Positions 53,869-63,118 of a stretch of DNA of 64,000 nucleotides are shown one piece after another. This DNA comes from Myxococcales bacterium (GTDB lineage Bacteria; Myxococcota_A; Polyangia; Haliangiales; Haliangiaceae). Below the pieces are notes generated by a model, which worked only from the letters and a program-made list of their open reading frames with translations, was not told where the DNA came from and searched no databases. Every line of letters starts with the position of its first letter. Position 1 is the first letter of the stretch. The stretch covers positions 1 through 64,000 of the forward strand of contig JADKKI010000012.1 of assembly GCA_016720595.1 (NCBI GenBank), read 5' to 3'. A program made the translations under genes and the position numbers.

Positions 53869-55434
53869 TCAAGCCGACACCGTCGGACGCAAAATTCTTC
53901 GCACCTCGGTGACCTCGATCTCGACTGGCTCACACGCCCCGACATCCGAGATCACCAGAAACTTGAGCTTGGACCCGATCCGCTTCTTGTCGACCTGGAC
54001 CCGAGCGAGGACCTCGTCACGCAGCCAGGGGTCCAGCTCCGACGGCAACCCGCTCGAGACCAGCGCGGCGACCACTTCGGCCTCGAGATCGGCCCTGGCG
54101 AGCCCCAGGGCGGTGGACACCCGGCACGCGGCCACCAGGCCCAGCCCGACACACTCGCCGTGCAGGAGGCCTCCGTCGGAGGCGGACTCGATCGCGTGGC
54201 CGATCGTGTGCCCGAGGTTGAGCAGCGCCCGGTGGCCCGTGAGCTCGCGCTCGTCGCGGCCGACGATGGCGGCCTTGTAGGCGATCGAGCGCTCGATCAC
54301 CTCGCGCAGCGCGCTCGGAGGCGCGGCGTGCTCCGGCCCCGCCGCCCAGGCAGCGCACGCCGCCACGCCACGCCACAGCTCTGCGCCGTCGAGGAGCGCG
54401 TACTTCCACAGCTCGCCGAAGCCGGCCCGCCGCTCGCGCGCAGGGAGCGTGGTCAAGGTCGGCAGATGGCACGCCACCAGGCGCGGCTGCCAGAACGCAC
54501 CGACGAGGTTCTTGCCCGCGGGCAGGTCCACCGCCGTCTTACCGCCGATCGCGGCATCGGTCATCGCCACGATCGTGGTCGGGACCTGCACCACCGGGAG
54601 GCCGCGAAACAAGGTGGCGGCGACGAACCCGGCGAGATCTCCGACCACGCCGCCACCGAGCGCGACGATCGCCGAGCCGCGATCGAGGCCGGCCGCGACC
54701 AGTTGCTGACACGTCTGCTCGTAGACCGCGAACGACTTGCTCGCCTCGCCGGGCGCGAGCTCGATCACCACATCGCCGGGGAGCGTCCAGTGCCTCCCGA
54801 CGTTGCGATCCGTGATCACCGCGAGCTTGGTGACGGGCCCGAGCACCGCGCGGATCGCGTCGACCGAAGGTGGCGCAGCGTCGATCGTCACCGGATAGGT
54901 TCGGTCGCCGAGCGCGAGGAACGTCGCGTGGCCACCCGCCGGGAGCCGCGCCGCGCTCGCCTCCACCGCGCGGACCGCCGTGACCACCTCGTCGATCGTC
55001 TTGCCGGTGGTCTCCACCACGGCATGCGCACGCCGGTACACGGGCGCTCGCTTCGCGGCGAGCGTGGCCGCAGAGGCGAGCAGCGGGCGTGGAGGTCCGC
55101 CCCGAGCGCGCCGCGCGGCCTCGTCGAGATCGACGTTGAGGGCGACCACCAGGCCCGCCGCGCGCATCCGGGCCAGGTTGTCGCCGAACGTCGCCGCACC
55201 GCCACCGGTGGCGATCACGGGTGCATCGCCAGCGTCGGCGATCACCTGCGCGAGCGCGGCCGCCTCGCGGCGCCGGAACTCGGGCTCGTCGCGCGCCACC
55301 AGCTGCGCGACCGGCTCCCCCATCGCAGCGATCACGTCATCCAGATCGACGAACCGCCGCCGCGTCGCAGCTGCGAGCGCCCGGCCGACCGAGGTCTTGC
55401 CGGCCGCCATGAAGCCGATGACGAACAGCGCCAC
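53869..55434 (-). CDS. aroKB: Shikimate kinase / 3-dehydroquinate synthase fusion
   Basis: 521 residues from GTG 55434, overlapping the pilQ stop (TAGTG). The N-terminal shikimate kinase (about 1-165) has the Walker A GFMAAGKTSVGRALA, VDLDDVI and IATGGGAA. The C-terminal 3-dehydroquinate synthase (about 175-521) has ALGGGVVGDLAGFVAATLFR, VPTTIVAMTDAAIGGKTAVD, LNLGHTIGHAIE and LLHGECVGLGLV, with metal-binding His/Glu. The fusion joins steps 2 and 5 of the shikimate pathway. Its position directly after pilQ is the common order in this phylum and in many other bacteria. Confidence 0.95.
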   Translation of the reverse strand: MALFVIGFMAAGKTSVGRALAAATRRRFVDLDDVIAAMGEPVAQLVARDEPEFRRREAAALAQVIADAGDAPVIATGGGAATFGDNLARMRAAGLVVALNVDLDEAARRARGGPPRPLLASAATLAAKRAPVYRRAHAVVETTGKTIDEVVTAVRAVEASAARLPAGGHATFLALGDRTYPVTIDAAPPSVDAIRAVLGPVTKLAVITDRNVGRHWTLPGDVVIELAPGEASKSFAVYEQTCQQLVAAGLDRGSAIVALGGGVVGDLAGFVAATLFRGLPVVQVPTTIVAMTDAAIGGKTAVDLPAGKNLVGAFWQPRLVACHLPTLTTLPARERRAGFGELWKYALLDGAELWRGVAACAAWAAGPEHAAPPSALREVIERSIAYKAAIVGRDERELTGHRALLNLGHTIGHAIESASDGGLLHGECVGLGLVAACRVSTALGLARADLEAEVVAALVSSGLPSELDPWLRDEVLARVQVDKKRIGSKLKFLVISDVGACEPVEIEVTEVRRILRPTVSA

Positions 55435-58400
55435 TACTGGCAGCGTAGCAGGGCTTTGTTCGTGATCTTCGGCGTGATGAACACGAGGATCTCGGTGCGG
55501 TCATCGTTCTCGCGGCGGTTCTTGAAGAACCAGCCGATCACCGGAAGGTCACCGAAGAACGGCACCTTCTTGTACGCGAGACCGGTGTTGCGCGTGTAGA
55601 TGCCACCGAGGACCGAGGTCTCGCCATCGGCGACGAGCATCTGGGTCTTGGCTTCCTTGCGGAGGATCGTCGGGTCACCACGTGCACCGACGTTGACGAA
55701 GTCGGGCTCGTTCTTGGTCACGTTGAGGTTCATCGCGATCGCGCAGTCGCGCTGCGAGACGTACGGCGTGACCGTGAGGGCGAGGTCGGCCTGGACGAAC
55801 TGCGTCTGCGTACCGGCCGCCGAGACGACGGAGATCGGGATCGAGACGCCCTGGCTGATCTTCGCTTCCTTGTTGTTCAGCACGGTGATCTTCGGTGCCG
55901 AGATGATGCGCACGGTGCCGGAGTCCTCGAGAGCCGAGAGGCGGAGGTTCAGGTTGAAGTTGCCGCCCACCGAGCCGAGCGCGAAGCCGATCGCACCACC
56001 TTCGCCGGTGCCGACCGCGGCCGGCAAGTTGATCGCGAAGTCCGAAGGCGTCGCGGTGCCGCGGCGGTTGGTCTGGTTGTCTTCCGCACCACCGGCGATC
56101 CCGATGCTCGACGGGAACACGAGGCCCGTCGAGTTGCCGCCGGCCGGGCTCGCGGAGGCGCTACCGCCCCACTGGATGCCGAGCTGGCGGAGGAACGTCG
56201 AGCGGGCTTCCACGATGCGCGCCTCGATCGAGATCTGCGGGGTCTGCGTATCGAGCATCAGTGCGAGGCGCTGGATCTCGCCGCGGTTGCCGGCGACGTC
56301 GTTGATGATCAGCGCGTTGGTGCGCTCGTCGACCTCGATGCGGCCCTTCGGCGAGAGCATCGGCTCGAGCTTGCTCTTGAGCTCCGCGGCCGACGCGTAG
56401 TTTAGCGGGACCACCTCGGAGCGCGGGCTCTCGGCCTTGATCATCGCCTCGCGGCGCGCGGCCTCGGCCTCGTCCTCCGCGTCGAGCTCCTTGCGGGGCG
56501 CGATGCGGAACAGGTTTCCATCGCGGCGGTACCACAGACCGTGCGACGCGAGGATGACCTCGAGCGCCTGGTCCCACGGCACGCGCTTCAGGCGAACCGT
56601 GACCTTCGCGTCGATGCCATCGGGCACCACGATGTTGACCTTGCCGGTGTCCGCGATGGTGCGGAGCAGATCGTGGATCGGGGCATCCTTGAAGTCGAAG
56701 TCGACCGTGGCACCGCGATAGACCTTGCGGTTGCGACCGCCCTGCGGGGGCAGCTGCGCGACGGTCTGCTGCGCGATCGGCGTGGAGGCCGCGCCGAAGC
56801 CGCCGACGACCGGCGACGGGACGTTCTGCGTGCGCGGGGCGCGCTTGGCGACCTGCTCGCCGACGAACCGCCAGCGCACCGTGGAGCCATCGCGATCGAT
56901 GCTCGGCGTCATCGGCGACGCGAGCTCGGCGATCAGACGGACGCGATTCGCCGTGCGACGATCACGGAACGAGGACACTGCGCGGACCGGGCTCCCGAAC
57001 CGCGTGACATCGAGCTTGCGCTCGAGCTTCTGCGCGAGCTCCGCGCCATCGATGATCAGCTCGACATGAGTCGGCGTGACCTCGCCGAGGGTCACCTGAC
57101 CGTCGCCGGTCATCGCGATGTCGACCTGGCCACTGCCGTCGTCGCCCTTGAACGCGATGTCCTTGACGAATGCGGCCTTCGCGAACTTGGTGGCCACCGT
57201 CGTCGGCTGCACCACCGGGGTCACCGTCGCGACCTTGCTCGCGTCGGCCTTCTTCGCGTCGAGAGCTGCGAGCTCCTTCTCCTCCTGCATCCGCTGCGTG
57301 GCGAGCTGCGCGCGGCGGCGCTCCTCGCGCTCCGCGGCATCGCGCGCCTGGGCGGCGAGCGTACGGAGGCGATCCGACTCGGCCTGCTGCTGGGCGACCG
57401 CCTTGCGGCGATCGGAGAGATCGGTCTCGGCCTGCTTGCGCTCGTCGGCGAGCTTGGCCGCGGCCGCGCGCGCCTTGGTGAGCTCCGCGTCGGTGGCCTG
57501 CCGCGCCTTCGCGGACGCGACCTCGGACTGCGCCTTCGCCTCGGCCTTGCTGCGTGCCTCGAGCTCCGACGCGGCCTTCTCGGCCGCCTCGCGGCGCGCC
57601 ATCAGCTCGTCGAGCCCGGCCTCGGCATCGTGCTTCGCGCCGACGGCCTTGGCGGCCGACGCCTCGGCGATCGCGCGCTGCTTCTCGGCGGCCGCGGTCG
57701 CGACCTGGGCATCCTTCGCCGCGGCCTCGGCCGCCTTGCGCTGCTGCTCGGCCGTGGTGCGCTGCTGCTCCGCCTCGCTGCGCTGCTTGGTCGCGGTCGC
57801 CGCGGCGGTCTCCGCCTCGGCACGCCGGCGACCTGCATCGGACGCCGCCGCCTCGGCCTCGCTGCGCTTGCGCGCGGCATCGTTGGCCGCACGCTCGGCG
57901 CTGGTGCGCTGCTGCTCCACGCTCGCGAGCGTGGACCGCGTCTGATCGAGATCCTTGCGGGCGGTGGTCGCCGCGGTCTCCGCCGCCACGCGCCGCGCCT
58001 CGGCGGCATCGGCGAGCTGCTTGGCCTTGAAGAACCGCGCCTCGGCCGCCTTCGCATCGGCGACGAGCTTCTCGCGCTCCGACGCCACCTGGTTGGTCGA
58101 GGCATCACGAGCCTTGGCCGCGGTCCGCGCCGCTTCCTCGGCCTTCTCGCGCTCGCGCATCGCGTTCGCGACGGTGTCGCGGGCCGCTTCCTCACGGGCC
58201 AGCGCCGCGGCGTGGGCCGCGCGCGCCTTGTCCTCGCGGGCCTGGACCTCGAGCGCCTTCTTGTCGAGCGTGGAGAGCTGGGACTTCGCATCCTTCAGGA
58301 GCTTCTCCGCCTCGGCACGCGCAGTGATCGCGCCCTGCTTGTCCGCCTCGGCCTCGCGCTTCTCGGCGGCGGCCATGGTCTTCGCTGCATCCGCCTCGGC

Positions 58401-59687
58401 CTTGGCCGCCTTCGCCTCGGCGCGCGCCCGCGTGGCATCCGCCTTCGCGGCCTCCGCCTCGCTCCGCGCACGCTCGGCATCCGCGTTGGAGCGCGCGATG
58501 TCGGTCTTCGTCTTGGCCGCCTCGACGCGCGCCTGCTCCGCCTCGAGCCGCTTCTGCGCCACATCGCGACGCGCCTGCTCCGCCTCGGCCTTCGCCGCGA
58601 GGGCATCGGCCTTCGCCGCATTCGCCTCGAGCCGTGCCGCCACGGTCTCCGCCTTGGTCCGCGATGCGGCATCCACGGCCTTCGCCGCATTCGCGCGCGC
58701 CACCTCGGCATCGCGACGCGCCTGCTCCGCCTCGGCCTTCGCCTGCGCCGCCGCATCCACATCACGCGCCGCGGCGCGCTTCACTTGATCCGCCTCGGCC
58801 TTGGTGCGCGCGATGTCCTGCGCCGCCGCGACCTTGACCGCATCCGCCTCGGCCTTCGCCGTGGCGGCCATCGAGCGGGCCTTGCCCACCTCGGCCTGCG
58901 CCGTGGCCGCATCCTGCTTCGCCTTCATCACCTCGGCCTGCGCCGACGAGGAATCCGACTTCGCCTTCTGGGCATCGGCCTGCGCTGCCGCGGCCATCGC
59001 CTTGGCCCGGGTCGCCTCGGCCTGTGCCGCGGCGGCCATCGCCTTGGCCTTGTCGACATCTACCGAGCTCGCCTGCTGCGCGGCGCGCTTCGCGTCATCT
59101 GCTGCGCGCTGCGCCGACTCGGCGCGCGCTTGCTGATCACTCGCGGCCTTGCGGAGGCGTTCGGCCTCGGCCTGCGCTGCGAGGCTCGCCTTCTCGGCGG
59201 CCGCCTGGGCTTGCTGCGCCCTGGCCAGCGCCTCGGGGCTCGCGGTCTTCGGCGCCGCGTCGCGCGCGGACACCATGACCACGACCTCGTTGCCGTCGGT
59301 CTTGACGTCATAACGACCGGGGCGTGCGAGCGTGACGATCACGCGGACCATCTGGCCCCCGTCATCGAGCTGCTGCGCCGCGATCGTCGAGACCGCCCAG
59401 GTACTCGGGGTGAACACGCTCGCGCCTTCATGGCCGCGGAGTGATTCGGCGAGCCGCGCTTGCGGCACATCGATCACGACCCGGCTCGGGCGTTCGAGCT
59501 TGTACACGGTGAACGTAGGCGTCTGCTCGCCTCGCACGTGCACACGTGTGGTGCCGGTCGCGTCGTCGTCGAACGTGACGGCGCGGATTTCGTTCTTGCC
59601 ATCGGCAAGTGCCGGTCGCGCTGCCATCAGGGCAGCCGTTGCGACGACGAGGGTGGCGGTCCAGTTCTTCGGGCGAGTCAGCAGCAT
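55434..59687 (-). CDS. pilQ: Type IV pilus secretin PilQ with giant coiled-coil insertion
   Basis: 1417 residues from ATG 59687 with AGGAG five bases upstream; about 500-700 longer than usual PilQ. Order: signal VVATAALMAARPALA; AMIN domain 1 (NEIRAVTFDDDATGTTRVHV, 30-145); an Ala/Lys/Glu/Arg/Gln heptad-like coiled coil with units such as KAEAEQARRDAEVARANAAK (about 150-815); AMIN domain 2 (FVKDIAFKGDDGSGQVDIAM, about 840-940); STN/secretin N0 domain (GATVDFDFKDAPIHDLLRTI, about 985-1060); NolW-type domain (VVPLNYASAAELKSKLEPML); and the secretin core with PKITVLNNKEAKISQG and TGLAYKKVPFFGDLPVIGWF. It forms the outer-membrane pore for the pilus. The coiled coil could span the periplasm or bind peptidoglycan, an inference. 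Confidence 0.93.
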   Translation of the reverse strand: MLLTRPKNWTATLVVATAALMAARPALADGKNEIRAVTFDDDATGTTRVHVRGEQTPTFTVYKLERPSRVVIDVPQARLAESLRGHEGASVFTPSTWAVSTIAAQQLDDGGQMVRVIVTLARPGRYDVKTDGNEVVVMVSARDAAPKTASPEALARAQQAQAAAEKASLAAQAEAERLRKAASDQQARAESAQRAADDAKRAAQQASSVDVDKAKAMAAAAQAEATRAKAMAAAAQADAQKAKSDSSSAQAEVMKAKQDAATAQAEVGKARSMAATAKAEADAVKVAAAQDIARTKAEADQVKRAAARDVDAAAQAKAEAEQARRDAEVARANAAKAVDAASRTKAETVAARLEANAAKADALAAKAEAEQARRDVAQKRLEAEQARVEAAKTKTDIARSNADAERARSEAEAAKADATRARAEAKAAKAEADAAKTMAAAEKREAEADKQGAITARAEAEKLLKDAKSQLSTLDKKALEVQAREDKARAAHAAALAREEAARDTVANAMREREKAEEAARTAAKARDASTNQVASEREKLVADAKAAEARFFKAKQLADAAEARRVAAETAATTARKDLDQTRSTLASVEQQRTSAERAANDAARKRSEAEAAASDAGRRRAEAETAAATATKQRSEAEQQRTTAEQQRKAAEAAAKDAQVATAAAEKQRAIAEASAAKAVGAKHDAEAGLDELMARREAAEKAASELEARSKAEAKAQSEVASAKARQATDAELTKARAAAAKLADERKQAETDLSDRRKAVAQQQAESDRLRTLAAQARDAAEREERRRAQLATQRMQEEKELAALDAKKADASKVATVTPVVQPTTVATKFAKAAFVKDIAFKGDDGSGQVDIAMTGDGQVTLGEVTPTHVELIIDGAELAQKLERKLDVTRFGSPVRAVSSFRDRRTANRVRLIAELASPMTPSIDRDGSTVRWRFVGEQVAKRAPRTQNVPSPVVGGFGAASTPIAQQTVAQLPPQGGRNRKVYRGATVDFDFKDAPIHDLLRTIADTGKVNIVVPDGIDAKVTVRLKRVPWDQALEVILASHGLWYRRDGNLFRIAPRKELDAEDEAEAARREAMIKAESPRSEVVPLNYASAAELKSKLEPMLSPKGRIEVDERTNALIINDVAGNRGEIQRLALMLDTQTPQISIEARIVEARSTFLRQLGIQWGGSASASPAGGNSTGLVFPSSIGIAGGAEDNQTNRRGTATPSDFAINLPAAVGTGEGGAIGFALGSVGGNFNLNLRLSALEDSGTVRIISAPKITVLNNKEAKISQGVSIPISVVSAAGTQTQFVQADLALTVTPYVSQRDCAIAMNLNVTKNEPDFVNVGARGDPTILRKEAKTQMLVADGETSVLGGIYTRNTGLAYKKVPFFGDLPVIGWFFKNRRENDDRTEILVFITPKITNKALLRCQ

Positions 59688-59810: not shown

Positions 59811-60566
59811 TCATTTTGGCGCGTCAGATTTATCTGACGGCGCCGGCGGGGGCTGTGGCACGTTCTTCGGAGCAGTCGGCGGCGCCACATCGGGCGTCGC
59901 CGTCTTCGCAGCTTCGTTGTCGAGGGTCGGCTGGGACGAGATCGGCATCTGGTTCGGGTACAGCTGGATCGATCGCTCCTCACCGGTCCGCGCGACCCCG
60001 GAGGCGGTCTCGTCGGGCTCGATCTGGAACGTGATGTACCCGGTCCCGATGTCCTTCACGACCGCCTTCTCGCGGCCGACGCAATCGCCTCGCTTGATGA
60101 TGTGGCCGAGGTTGCCGGCGTCCATCATCAGCACCTTGCGCTGCGTGCCCTGGGCGACGATGCCGACCAGGCGAAGGTCCGTATAGCTGTAGTTGGTGGC
60201 GACCATCTGATCGTCACGCGTGCACTTCTTCGTGATGTCGCGCGGCAGCTTGTTGTCCGAGGTGGGCCCGACGATGCCCTGGTTCAGGACGAACGACTGG
60301 AACGGATCGCGATTGCTCTGCTCCACCGCGAAGTCGCGCTCTTTAAAGACGTGCCGGATCCCCTTCTTCTCGTCGGGGTTGAGCACGCGATCCTCGACGC
60401 GAACGCGCGGGGTGAAGTTCGGAGGCGGCTTGGCGGGCTTGCCGCCCGGCTTGCCAGGCGCCGCGGCTCCGGCCTTCGGGGGCGGTGGCGCACCGGTCGG
60501 CTCGTCTTCGCCGCAACCGGCGGCGACCAGGGCGAGAGAGATCGGGAGCAGGTAGCGCATCTGCAT
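59811..60566 (-). CDS. pilP: Type IV pilus assembly lipoprotein PilP
   Basis: 251 residues from ATG 60566, inside the pilO stop (TGATG). Lipoprotein signal LLPISLALVAAGCGEDEP, a Pro/Gly/Lys-rich linker (residues 20-50), then the PilP domain RVEDRVLNPDEKK...YSYTDLRLVGIVAQGTQRKV and GHIIKRGDCVGREKAVVKDI. Binds PilN-PilO inside and the N0 domain of PilQ outside, linking the inner-membrane platform to the secretin. Pro/Ala-rich C-terminal tail. Confidence 0.93.
   Translation of the reverse strand: MQMRYLLPISLALVAAGCGEDEPTGAPPPPKAGAAAPGKPGGKPAKPPPNFTPRVRVEDRVLNPDEKKGIRHVFKERDFAVEQSNRDPFQSFVLNQGIVGPTSDNKLPRDITKKCTRDDQMVATNYSYTDLRLVGIVAQGTQRKVLMMDAGNLGHIIKRGDCVGREKAVVKDIGTGYITFQIEPDETASGVARTGEERSIQLYPNQMPISSQPTLDNEAAKTATPDVAPPTAPKNVPQPPPAPSDKSDAPK
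59822..59839 (-). promoter_or_regulatory. Perfect hairpin at the 3' end of pilP, followed by AT-rich tract
   Basis: CGTCAGAT-AA-ATCTGACG reading the minus strand: two perfect 8-bp arms across the last codons of pilP, followed downstream by runs of A and T. It resembles an imperfect terminator or an RNase-stabilising stem located between pilP and pilQ. A partial-termination role is inference. Confidence 0.45.
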
Positions 60567-61393
60567 CACATGCCTCCCTTCAGCTTGTCGGCACTGTCCG
60601 CGGGCGTCTTCGGATCCGCCACGCCATTGGTGCTCCGCTCGGTGCCCTTCTCGATCGCGTTCTCGGTGCGCGCCTTCGCGCCTGCGGGCGTGTTGGACGG
60701 CGGCATCGGCGCGGCCTTGTCGGCGGGCGCCGCCGCCTTCGGCGGATCACCCGGCTTGGCCGCCGGCTCCTCGGCCTTGTCTTCCTGGCGGAACGTGACG
60801 GCGACGAACTTCGCCGTCAGCGCGATCTCGCGGTTCTTCACCACCGGGTTGATCAACGAGAGGTTCTCGATCGAGATGATGCGCTCGCGCTCCTCGACGC
60901 CGGAGTCGCTCACCTGGAGCACGCCGCGCTGGATCAGCGACGCGAAGAACCGCTTGATCTGCATGAACGTGCCGGTGACCTCGATCTCCACCGGGACACG
61001 CACGAAGCTCTCGACCGGGCTCTCCGGCAGCTTCTTCCACTTGTTGATCTCGACGCCGGACTCGGTGACCTTGCGCTCGAGCGTCTCGAAGAACGCCGGG
61101 ACCTCCGCCTCGGTGGGGAGTGCCTTCTGGTTCTCCGTGATGATCTGCGTGAGCTCCTTCATCCGCGACTTGAGCTCTTCGTACTTCGGGATGTCGTCGC
61201 CGAGCTTCTTGTTGGTCGCCGCCTTGGTCGCGTTGTCGGCCTCGGCCGCCTCGACATCACGCGTGAGCGGCTTGAAGCCGAACTGCCAGTAGGCCAGCCC
61301 GCCGACGAGCCCGATCACGAGGAACACGAGCGCCTTCTTCGAGGCAGGGAGCCGCCCGAAGTCGGCCATCACGCCGCCGCTACTAGCCGCCAT
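60566..61393 (-). CDS. pilO: Type IV pilus inner-membrane protein PilO
   Basis: 275 residues from ATG 61393, overlapping the pilN stop (TAATG). One membrane helix KKALVFLVIGLVGGLAYWQF near the N-terminus, a coiled coil (EAAEADNATKAATNKKLGDD...), then the PilO ferredoxin-like core (EVPAFFETLERKVTESGVEI, VEIEVTGTFMQIKRFFASLI). A Pro/Ala/Lys-rich tail of about 60 residues is longer than usual. Pairs with PilN in the alignment complex. Confidence 0.93.
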   Translation of the reverse strand: MAASSGGVMADFGRLPASKKALVFLVIGLVGGLAYWQFGFKPLTRDVEAAEADNATKAATNKKLGDDIPKYEELKSRMKELTQIITENQKALPTEAEVPAFFETLERKVTESGVEINKWKKLPESPVESFVRVPVEIEVTGTFMQIKRFFASLIQRGVLQVSDSGVEERERIISIENLSLINPVVKNREIALTAKFVAVTFRQEDKAEEPAAKPGDPPKAAAPADKAAPMPPSNTPAGAKARTENAIEKGTERSTNGVADPKTPADSADKLKGGM

Positions 61394-62067
61394 TAGTAGG
61401 CCACCCTTCCGGTGATCGTGAACTTGTAATACTGGAGCCCGCTCTCCTTGTCGTTCATGCGCTCACCGCCCGCGGGTGTGACATCCATGAAGTAGACCGA
61501 TGCGGCGAGCCGCTTCGAGAGCTGGGTGACATCCGATTCGGACTGGGCGCCACCGTCGAGCTTGAACACACCGTTGGTGTCCACGAACGAGATCATCCAG
61601 ACGTGGCCTGGATCCCAGTCGGTGACGAACCGTTTGTTCGGATCGCTATCGGTGGTGTTGCCGGCGAGCTTCGCCATCGTCTCGGTCATCGTGGGCCCTT
61701 CCCGCGTGAGGACCTTGCCGAGCTCGTGGAGCACGTGGGCCGGCACGACCTTGGTCGCGAGCAGGCGGTTGATCGATTCGGCGCGCTTCTTCGACTGCTC
61801 TTCCGCCTTCTTGAGCTCGTCGTAGCCCTTGAGCGCCTTGGTCTTCTCGTTGATCTGCTGCTGCAGCTGCCCGTTGGCGTCCTTGACCTCGTGGAGGCGG
61901 CTGCGCTTGGGCATGTCGAGCGCGAAGTACACGCCGACCGCCGCCGCACCGAGCGCCGCGATGCCGATCAGGCCCTGCTTGGCCGAGGGATCGGAGGGCG
62001 AGGACGAGGAGGAGCTGGCGAAGCCTCGCTTCGCCTTCTTCTGAGGTAGGAGGTTTACCTTGATCAT
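61393..62067 (-). CDS. pilN: Type IV pilus inner-membrane protein PilN
   Basis: 224 residues from ATG 62067, four bases after the pilM stop. Starts MIKVNLLPQKKAKRG with the INLLP-type motif that docks into the PilM groove, a serine-rich spacer, a membrane helix GLIGIAALGAAAVGVYFALD, a coiled coil, and a PilN core (VTDWDPGHVWMISFVDTNGV, YYKFTITGRVAY). Partners PilM and PilO. Confidence 0.93.
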   Translation of the reverse strand: MIKVNLLPQKKAKRGFASSSSSSPSDPSAKQGLIGIAALGAAAVGVYFALDMPKRSRLHEVKDANGQLQQQINEKTKALKGYDELKKAEEQSKKRAESINRLLATKVVPAHVLHELGKVLTREGPTMTETMAKLAGNTTDSDPNKRFVTDWDPGHVWMISFVDTNGVFKLDGGAQSESDVTQLSKRLAASVYFMDVTPAGGERMNDKESGLQYYKFTITGRVAY

Positions 62068-62071
62068 GGCG

Positions 62072-63118
62072 CTACTTGTCTCCTGCCGCGCGCATCGCGA
62101 GGCCGACGCCGATCAGCGCCTCTGGTGAGTGCGCCCCGAGGTACATGCGGTCGAGCGTAGCGTCGATCTCGACCCTCCGCCACGCATCCGCGACCTCGAG
62201 GGGGAGCCGCGACCGGCGCTCGATGGCGCGGTGCAGCGAGCCGACCTTCGCGCTACCGCCCGCGAGGACGATGCGCGTGACGTTTGCATCGGCCGTGGTG
62301 GCGAGGAAGAAGTCCAGCGACCGCTGGAACTCGCCGGCCATGACCTCGGAGACACCGTCCATCACCTTGATGACCTCCTGCGGGACGACCCCGTCATCGG
62401 TCTGGTTGCCACCGACCTTGTAGGCCTCGGCCTCATCGGCGGCGATGCCGAGCTGCTTCTGGATCTCTTCGGTGAACGCGTTGCCACCGATCGTCACGTC
62501 GCGCGTGAACAGCGACACGCCGCTGCGCACGATGTTGATGTTCGAGATCGCGGCGCCGATGTTGATCAGCACCACCGTCTCGCGAGGATCCAGTGGGTAG
62601 TTCGCCTCGAAGCCGTTCTGACTCGCGAACGCCGCCACGTCGACGACCTGCGGGATCAGCCCGGCATCGCGGACGCACTGGATGTAATCGGCGACGACCT
62701 CCTTCTTGGCGGCGACGAGCAACAGCTCCGTCTGACCGCTGGAGTTCGCCGGGTTCGTGACGTGATAGTCGATCTCGACATCATCGCGTCCGAACGGAAT
62801 GTGGTGCTCCGCCTCTGCGCGGATGTTGGTCTGCAGCTGCTCGGCCGACATCTGCGGGACGCTGATCTTCTTGATGATGACGGAGTGACCCGCGATGGCG
62901 ATCGCGACGTCCTTCGTCTTCAACTTGAGACGTCCCCACAACTGTCGGACCGCGTCGGCGACTGCGCCTTGGTCCATGATCGTCCCGTCGACGATCGTCT
63001 GAGGTACCAGCGGTTGCATCCCGAAGGCCTGCAACGCATAGCCGGACCCCTTTTTGCGCAGCTGTACAACCTTGATGCTGCTGGAGCCGATGTCGAGCCC
63101 GATGCACTGTTTGGCCAT
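62072..63118 (-). CDS. pilM: Type IV pilus actin-like ATPase PilM
   Basis: 348 residues from ATG 63118. ASKHA fold: IGLDIGSSSIKVVQLRKKGS (phosphate-1), VPQMSAEQLQTNIRAEAEHH, VVLINIGAAISNINIVRSGV (phosphate-2), GGNAFTEEIQKQL and IVLAGGSAKVGSL (adenosine motif). A cytoplasmic ring that binds PilN. First gene of the pilMNOPQ operon. Confidence 0.95.
   Translation of the reverse strand: MAKQCIGLDIGSSSIKVVQLRKKGSGYALQAFGMQPLVPQTIVDGTIMDQGAVADAVRQLWGRLKLKTKDVAIAIAGHSVIIKKISVPQMSAEQLQTNIRAEAEHHIPFGRDDVEIDYHVTNPANSSGQTELLLVAAKKEVVADYIQCVRDAGLIPQVVDVAAFASQNGFEANYPLDPRETVVLINIGAAISNINIVRSGVSLFTRDVTIGGNAFTEEIQKQLGIAADEAEAYKVGGNQTDDGVVPQEVIKVMDGVSEVMAGEFQRSLDFFLATTADANVTRIVLAGGSAKVGSLHRAIERRSRLPLEVADAWRRVEIDATLDRMYLGAHSPEALIGVGLAMRAAGDK

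What the first reader, a model, noticed from the sequence alone, without database searches (positions are those of the whole stretch)
57240..59240. PilQ with a 665-residue Ala/Lys/Glu coiled coil between two AMIN domains
Secretin PilQ is normally about 650-900 residues. Here the frame is intact and encodes about 1417, with the extra length a single, highly repetitive helical region rich in KAEAEQAR-like units. It could form a long periplasmic stalk or bundle around the pilus channel, or lock PilQ to peptidoglycan. No comparable PilQ architecture is known to me.
Basis: partly seen in the sequence, partly recalled or inferred. Interest (0 to 1): 0.7.

Follow-up and report, generated by a model that had tools for sequence, protein, structure and literature searches.

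The report
Pilus gate with giant coiled-coil arms
In many relatives of myxobacteria the outer-membrane gate of the type IV pilus carries a very long rope-like coiled coil between its two cell-wall-binding domains, which probably lets each gate grip the cell wall far from the pore instead of only next to it.

Summary
In detail: window 55434-59687 (-) encodes an intact 1417-residue PilQ in a pilMNOPQ operon, with about 668 helical residues (57234-59237) between two AMIN domains. It is not a one-off. Of 134 complete sampled Myxococcota PilQ frames with two or more AMIN hits (window included), 96 carry such a coil at the same place, with AMIN-to-AMIN gaps of 238-2016 residues. A secretin-domain tree needs 4 changes. 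A clade close to Polyangiaceae lacks it; so, by frame length, do 22 PilQ matches from a neighbouring phylum. It is a real heptad coiled coil: a/d positions are the most conserved, and indels between close relatives keep register in the coil core (54 of 79 are multiples of 7) but not in the linker before AMIN2 (3 of 55). Opposite charges at separation 5 are in excess only from g to e (88 of 96 inserts), the mark of parallel in-register chains; antiparallel SMC arms lack it. Best reading: PilQ protomers zip into parallel arms, about 100 nm here, carrying a peptidoglycan-binding domain far from the pore. The papers searched do not describe it. Oligomer number, layout and function are inferred.

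The parts
55434..59687 (-). pilQ, 1417 aa, type IV pilus secretin with coiled-coil insert
59604..59687 (-). signal peptide-like N-terminus (residues 1-28)
   Evidence: sequence read by eye; no signal-peptide program was run
59277..59579 (-). AMIN1 (residues 37-137), at the far end of the coil
   Evidence: Pfam PF11741; beta domain in the AF2 model, block pLDDT 75-92
57234..59237 (-). coiled-coil insert, residues 151-818
   Evidence: AF2 helix; heptad statistics
57174..57233 (-). short linker (residues 819-838) between coil and AMIN2; in relatives, indels here do not keep heptad register
   Evidence: block pLDDT 34-58
56859..57173 (-). AMIN2 (residues 839-943), next to the secretin
   Evidence: Pfam AMIN second stretch, whose limits were not printed; limits from the AF2 beta domain, block pLDDT 89-95
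56496..56639 (-). STN / N0 domain (residues 1017-1064)
   Evidence: PF07660
56235..56420 (-). Secretin_N domain (residues 1090-1151)
   Evidence: PF03958
55461..55934 (-). Secretin domain (residues 1252-1409)
   Evidence: PF00263
59811..60569 (-). pilP (252 aa)
   Evidence: PF04351, 24.6 bits, just under the gathering score of 25.6
60566..61393 (-). pilO (275 aa)
   Evidence: PF04350
61393..62067 (-). pilN (224 aa)
   Evidence: PF05137
62072..63118 (-). pilM (348 aa)
   Evidence: PF11104, TIGR01175

Best explanation
PilQ here is an ordinary type IV pilus secretin into which a long heptad coiled coil was placed, probably early in Myxococcota history, between the outer AMIN domain (AMIN1) and the AMIN2-N0-N1-secretin core. 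PilQ protomers pair through this segment as parallel, in-register coiled coils (probably dimers, by analogy with tropomyosin and its alanine-rich core), so the assembled ring carries several stiff arms of about 100 nm, each ending in AMIN1 domains that bind peptidoglycan. Since the arms are much longer than a periplasm is deep and PilN, PilO and PilP keep ordinary sizes in the window, the arms most likely lie along the cell wall, spreading the pulling load of pilus retraction over a wide patch of wall, or catching septal/polar wall at a distance during placement. Shown by sequence: position, heptad register, register-keeping indels, charge pattern of parallel chains, AMIN at both ends, old and wide distribution; helix by prediction. 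Inferred: which protomers pair, oligomer number, in-plane layout, peptidoglycan binding by these AMIN domains, load-spreading or placement role.
For: AMIN flanks the coil in 96 of 96 complete coil-bearing frames. Heptad score z over 3 in 92 of 95 loci. Excess of opposite charges at separation 5 only for g to e: +0.105, 88 of 96 inserts; the other six start positions -0.012 to +0.006; 88 of 96 at each of three phase penalties. Antiparallel SMC arms from the same phylum: g to e -0.032, 9 of 22 arms. The signal vanishes on shuffling within heptad positions (+0.007, 42 of 87). Window alone: attraction 26 against 4.7 expected, 0 of 2000 re-pairings as high. Indels: coil core 54 of 79 multiples of 7; last 60 residues before AMIN2 3 of 55. 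Identity to five relatives a 0.71, d 0.79, e 0.60, g 0.53, b/c/f 0.36-0.44; alanines kept 0.83 and 0.90 at a and d against 0.59-0.64 at b/c/f. Four changes on the tree against 33.4 shuffled. Foldseek matches AMIN-type folds of N. meningitidis PilQ, M. xanthus PilQ and AmiC. M. xanthus PilQ needs its AMIN domains for recruitment to septum and poles (PMC10653833, abstract and section 8).
Against: No structure or experiment. The positive control for parallel coils was inconclusive: RNase Y N-terminal coils gave g to e +0.060 with b to g +0.118 (4 of 14 loci parsed) and +0.112 with b to g +0.092 and e to c +0.082 (9 of 14). The SMC control is small (11 proteins), and a PilQ sample cut to 12 pieces gave only +0.064, 9 of 12. 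Eight of 96 inserts lack the g-e excess; L182, L079 and L051 have heptad z under 2. dN/dS in the coil is 0.42-0.84 over five pairs against 0.15-0.38 in the secretin, so constraint is looser. Length changes a lot between near relatives: gaps of 392 and 836 at 88% secretin identity (P0030/P0040), 95 and 763 at 93% (P0073/P0083). Some core indels break register (15 of 79 are neither 7n nor 7n+4). The clade of L113, close to Polyangiaceae, does without a coil.
Confidence: 0.55

Rival explanations
1. The insert folds back on itself as antiparallel hairpins and forms a compact bundle or collar around the secretin vestibule.
For: A 100 nm rod does not fit upright in a periplasm; AF2 shows breaks at fragment 177-178, 314-330, 504-505 and 700-703 that could be turns, and pTM is only 0.30, so the layout is open.
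Against: The g-e(i+5) charge excess is not expected from antiparallel packing and is absent in SMC arms. Some close pairs differ by one large indel in one half of the coil with no partner in the other, e.g. 14 residues in P0100/P0111 and 29 in P0064/P0071.
Confidence: 0.15
2. The coil stands upright and sets a wider gap between outer membrane and peptidoglycan or inner membrane, as in Deinococcus SlpA.
For: SlpA is a parallel trimeric coil of about 28 nm from outer membrane to wall, and its length is said to fit the thicker periplasm (PMC9388160, passages seen).
Against: PilN, PilO and PilP in the window keep ordinary sizes (224, 275, 252 aa). In seven long-insert genomes mainly PilN is longer (357-388 aa), and in the two read the extra part is an Ala/Pro/Asp-rich C-terminal tail; one of the seven also has a 325-aa PilO. 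Gaps of 392 and 836 residues at 88% secretin identity would need spans of about 60 and 125 nm.
Confidence: 0.1
3. The insert is a repeat-slippage expansion that is merely tolerated as a linker and has no selected role.
For: 21- and 42-bp DNA repeats are present; length is very variable; dN/dS is 0.42 or more; it is absent in the clade of L113 and replaced by a 95-residue Pro/Gly-rich linker in P0073. Slippage of 21-bp repeats by itself favours indels of 7 residues.
Against: Core positions a and d are kept even when only alanines are compared; of 79 core indels only 7 are 1-3 residues, against 29 of 55 in the last 60 residues before AMIN2; the trait is widely retained (96 of 134, 4 changes); the g-e pairing is shared by most inserts (88 of 96).
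Confidence: 0.12
4. The coils pair between different PilQ rings, or with another protein, and link several pilus machines at a pole into one array.
For: Parallel homomeric pairing does not say which protomers pair; a 100-300 nm reach could bridge machines.
Against: No direct evidence; in-register pairing is simplest within one ring.
Confidence: 0.08

Closest known systems
Type IVa pilus secretin PilQ of Myxococcus xanthus (901 aa, three AMIN domains; PDB 3jc8)
   Same: Same AMIN-N0-N1-secretin order; best sequence match in the PDB; its AMIN domains are needed to recruit the machine to septum and poles (PMC10653833, abstract and section 8).
   Different: Its AMIN domains are joined by flexible linkers (PMC10653833, passage), not by a long coil. 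Frames with three AMIN hits in our sample have no coil either, apart from L127, where an extra AMIN hit overlaps the second domain.
SlpA / OmpM outer-membrane to cell-wall connectors
   Same: Parallel homo-oligomeric coiled coil joins an outer-membrane pore to a wall-side domain (PMC9388160, passages).
   Different: SLH domain and ordinary beta-barrel; stated length about 28 nm, against about 100 nm here and perhaps 300 nm in L143; not a pilus secretin.
TolA domain II (recalled)
   Same: Long Ala/Lys/Glu-rich periplasmic helix.
   Different: No TolA family reported for this protein at E 0.001 in Pfam or NCBIfam; TolA is an inner-membrane protein (recalled).
Tropomyosin (recalled)
   Same: Long parallel coiled coil with many alanines in the core; window a 52% and d 65% Ala.
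   Different: Eukaryotic, unrelated; its dimer state is only an analogy here.

Membership tests
Type IVa pilus secretin PilQ (TIGR02515) | Scores over the curated cut-off | tested here: met
   397.8 bits against 284.35
Type IVa pilus secretin PilQ (TIGR02515) | STN/N0, Secretin_N/N1 and Secretin domains in order | tested here: met
Type IVa pilus secretin PilQ (TIGR02515) | pilMNOPQ gene order | tested here: met
   PilP just under its Pfam gathering score
Type IVa pilus secretin PilQ (TIGR02515) | AMIN domain(s) before N0 (frequent, not universal) | tested here: met
   two stretches, two beta domains
Type IVa pilus secretin PilQ (TIGR02515) | Forms the outer-membrane pore for the pilus | not testable with these tools
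   needs experiment
Parallel in-register homomeric coiled coil | Heptad periodicity with a/d core | tested here: met
Parallel in-register homomeric coiled coil | g-e' (i to i+5) charge complementarity | tested here: met
   88 of 96 inserts, SMC control negative; positive control inconclusive
Parallel in-register homomeric coiled coil | Oligomer number and actual pairing | not testable with these tools
   needs a multimer prediction or experiment
SlpA/OmpM connector | SLH domain | tested here: not met
   no SLH family at E 0.001
SlpA/OmpM connector | Coil between outer-membrane pore and wall-binding domain | tested here: inconclusive
   same logic by domain order; wall binding of AMIN1 not tested
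TolA | TolA family match | tested here: not met
   none at E 0.001 in Pfam or NCBIfam

The most novel reading that the evidence does not exclude
In much of Myxococcota the pilus gate is a spoked wheel: pairs of PilQ chains form several parallel coiled-coil spokes of about 100 nm (window) to about 300 nm (a 2016-residue insert) that run along the wall and pin the gate to peptidoglycan through AMIN1 over a patch up to half a micrometre wide, an envelope-anchoring device much larger than the pilus machine itself, with spoke length evolving largely in heptad steps.
Probability: 0.3. Interest if true: 0.8.

Novelty: new variant of a known kind. Interest (0 to 1): 0.6.

Why it matters
PilQ is a well-studied outer-membrane gate, yet in much of one phylum it carries a coiled coil longer than the periplasm is deep. 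If the arms anchor to the wall at a distance, they bear on two open questions: how pilus retraction forces, said to exceed 100 pN (abstract of PMC3724824 as shown in the listing), are passed to the cell wall without tearing the gate out, and how machines are placed at septum and poles. Natural length variants (gaps of 392 and 836 residues at 88% secretin identity, 95 and 763 at 93%), heptad-step indels and coil-less relatives make the length dependence directly testable. It also offers a natural series of very long periplasmic coiled coils.

Tried and rejected
Own-genome search was not possible (no whole genome held). Fourier spectra of single inserts were noisy and less useful than autocorrelation and heptad scoring. 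The idea of one fixed half and one variable half of the coil was dropped: P0016 keeps the C-terminal half while the P0030 group lacks much of it. The idea that partner proteins lengthen with the coil was tested on 20 further regions, 17 of which gave the partners (L210, L211 and L221 gave none), and was not borne out apart from a disordered-looking PilN tail in one clade. Total insert length differences modulo 7 showed no pattern; indels placed along the insert do. My first split into 'core' and 'ends' put the last 130 residues before AMIN2 among the ends; redid it in finer bins and is the one quoted. RNase Y as positive control for parallel coils gave too few sequences (4, then 9 of 14 loci). 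SMC control: 11 of the 23 SMC loci fetched gave a parsed full-length protein. Foldseek matches of the coil itself to axonemal, F-BAR and SMC coils are generic. The 967-aa + strand frame 56541-59444 opposite pilQ was judged a by-product of GC-rich alanine codons and not followed. The second structure job was not used.
Full report
WHAT IS THERE. The window holds an operon on the minus strand: pilM 62072-63118, pilN 61393-62067, pilO 60566-61393, pilP 59811-60569, pilQ 55434-59687, followed by a fused aroK-aroB gene at 53869-55434. PilQ is 1417 aa from its ATG. Pfam gives AMIN (two stretches), STN, Secretin_N and Secretin. Solved chains called PilQ that match are 571-901 aa, apart from a 128-aa fragment, so the excess is real. 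The coil is residues 151-818 by AF2 (30-row alignment A1, window residues 30-950; mean pLDDT 76.3, pTM 0.30; helices 122-176, 179-313, 331-503, 506-699, 704-789 in fragment numbering; pLDDT under 60 over about 251-350). The pTM says that the layout is undetermined. Foldseek finds AMIN-type domains (N. meningitidis PilQ B2, M. xanthus PilQ, AmiC) and then only generic coils.

HOW COMMON. The protein search with the secretin part gave 2471 hits at E 1e-20 among 7994 scored candidates of 0.55-1.75 times the length; 120 are listed. Of these 120, 106 passed a score test for both AMIN domains; 103 of the 106 have AMIN-to-AMIN gaps of 392-864 residues, and P0067, P0073 and P0087 have 39, 95 and 200. 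Names where given: Kofleriaceae, Myxococcales, Deltaproteobacteria and a few other MAGs. I then sampled genomes: the class of G006 (144 genomes, 117 with a match) and its phylum (112 genomes, 91 with a match). I fetched 100 regions from the class matches (17 genomes left out, most of them cut by contig ends or partial) and 60 from the phylum matches (of the other 31, 21 were already among the class matches and 10 were left out to save calls). One PilQ frame came from each of the 160. Fifteen frames open at the 5' side were dropped, leaving 145 plus the window = 146. AMIN domains were sought with my own profiles built from the protein hits and iterated on these frames. Twelve of the 146 lacked two AMIN hits (none of the 12 has a coil) and are not counted. 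Of the remaining 134, 96 have 200 or more coil-like residues between AMIN domains (gaps 238-2016) and 38 have none (gaps 18-101, and two of 281 and 356 without coil). 'Coil-like' is a composition rule of mine, and the cut-off of 200 is mine too, but no frame lies between 100 and 200. The longest, L143, is a 2830-aa frame. A search from it found relatives P0121-P0194 of 1557-2646 aa. One neighbouring phylum (reached through a Bdellovibrionales genome) gave 22 matches in 59 genomes, longest frame 831 aa; other phyla were not sampled.

HISTORY. On a FastTree tree of the secretin part only, coil against no coil needs 4 changes (shuffles 33.4 on average, 0 of 500 as low; starred branches force 4). 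The simplest polarity is one gain before the 125-row clade and three losses (L177, L055, and the 21-row clade of L113, in which 15 rows are counted). The nearest named relatives of L113 include Polyangiaceae with PilQ of 746-775 aa and one of 512. The tree cannot prove gain against loss, its root is the midpoint, and it is a quick tree with three long branches (L182, L183, L160).

IS IT A COILED COIL. Identity autocorrelation in the window insert peaks at 7, 14, 21... 56 (z 4.3 at 7, 8.9 at 14); in L143 at 7, 14, 21, 28. Heptad score z is over 3 in 92 of 95 loci; weak in L182, L079, L051. In the window a is 52% Ala, d 65% Ala, e net positive and g net negative. Against five relatives, identity is 0.71 (a), 0.79 (d), 0.60 (e), 0.53 (g) and 0.36-0.44 (b, c, f); for alanines alone 0.83 and 0.90 at a and d, 0.69-0.73 at e and g, 0.59-0.64 at b, c, f, so composition alone does not explain it. 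In 37 independent pairs of close relatives (secretin identity at least 0.867), 54 of 79 indels in the coil core (30 residues in from AMIN1, 130 in from AMIN2) are multiples of 7, 10 are 7n+4, 15 are neither, and only 7 are 1-3 residues; in the last 60 residues before AMIN2 3 of 55 are multiples of 7 and 29 are 1-3 residues; within 30 residues of AMIN1 4 of 10; between 60 and 130 before AMIN2 0 of 3 (first, coarser split). Caveat: slippage of 21-bp repeats also yields 7s, and repeats bias alignments. dN/dS in the coil is 0.42-0.84 against 0.15-0.38 in the secretin (five pairs): constrained, but loosely.

PARALLEL OR ANTIPARALLEL. Intrahelical i+3 and i+4 salt bridges are in excess at every heptad position, as in any charged helix. 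At i+5, which is not an intrahelical contact, only g to e is in excess: +0.105, 88 of 96 inserts; the other positions lie between -0.012 and +0.006. At i+2 e to g is also up (+0.052, 70 of 96). The g-e excess holds at three phase penalties, is lost on shuffling within positions, and is absent in 22 arms of 11 SMC proteins from the same phylum, which are antiparallel (-0.032, 9 of 22). With PilQ cut to 12 pieces, it was +0.064, 9 of 12. RNase Y coils, meant as a positive control, were too few and not specific. That g-e' pairs mark parallel in-register coils, and that SMC arms are antiparallel, is established knowledge recalled here. Inserts are related, so 88 of 96 is not 96 independent events; the window alone gives 26 against 4.7 with 0 of 2000 re-pairings as high.

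WHAT IT DOES. A 668-residue helix is about 99 nm at 0.1485 nm per residue; 2016 residues about 300 nm (arithmetic on a recalled rise per residue). That exceeds any usual periplasm. PilN, PilO and PilP keep ordinary sizes in the window; in seven of the long-insert genomes PilN is 357-388 aa, and in the two sequences read (L203, L206) the extra part is an Ala/Pro/Asp-rich C-terminal tail. So the machine's own height appears unchanged, and the arms must lie flat or bend. AMIN domains in M. xanthus PilQ are required for septal and polar recruitment (PMC10653833: abstract, sections 8 and 12 and passages seen). In the sample the coil never occurs without AMIN at its far end (96 of 96), so the simplest role is to carry AMIN1 far from the pore. 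TsaP, a separate wall anchor of PilQ, is reported in all myxobacteria of one survey whose list includes Haliangium ochraceum (PMC6060248, passages); whether that species has the coil was not tested.

PRIOR ART. Eight paper searches and passages of PMC13190605, PMC6060248, PMC9388160 and PMC7541494 show no mention of a PilQ with a long coiled coil; most subscription papers are not in that library, and no supplementary file was read. The closest analogue in print seen here is SlpA.

CONCLUSION. It is a new variant of a known kind: a PilQ with a long coiled coil, probably parallel and homomeric, between its two AMIN domains, apparently old and widespread in Myxococcota.

Noticed in passing
   Followed up: partly
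L203-L209 (seven genomes of that clade): PilN is 357-388 aa; in 8 of the other 10 regions with a PilN it is 194-235 aa (two are frames without a clear start). In L203 and L206 the extra part is an Ala/Pro/Asp-rich C-terminal tail.
   Followed up: partly
L127, L134: Inserts with 27-30% Lys+Arg and only 6-8% Asp+Glu: a strongly basic coil, unlike the more balanced others looked at.
   Followed up: no
P0073, P0067, P0087: Relatives whose coil is replaced by a 39-200 residue linker, Pro/Gly-rich in P0067 and P0073; P0073 is 93% identical in the secretin to P0083, which has a 763-residue gap: possible recent losses.
   Followed up: partly
P0195-P0198: Very large secretin-domain proteins (3772-4536 aa); P0198 is named as from Phycisphaerales.
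   Followed up: no
L194, L195: 281- and 356-residue gaps between AMIN domains without any coil.
   Followed up: no
window 53869-55434 (-): Shikimate kinase fused to 3-dehydroquinate synthase, frame touching the pilQ stop codon (one shared base).
   Followed up: no
window 56541-59444 (+): 967-aa open frame antisense to pilQ, probably a by-product of GC-rich alanine codons.
   Followed up: no
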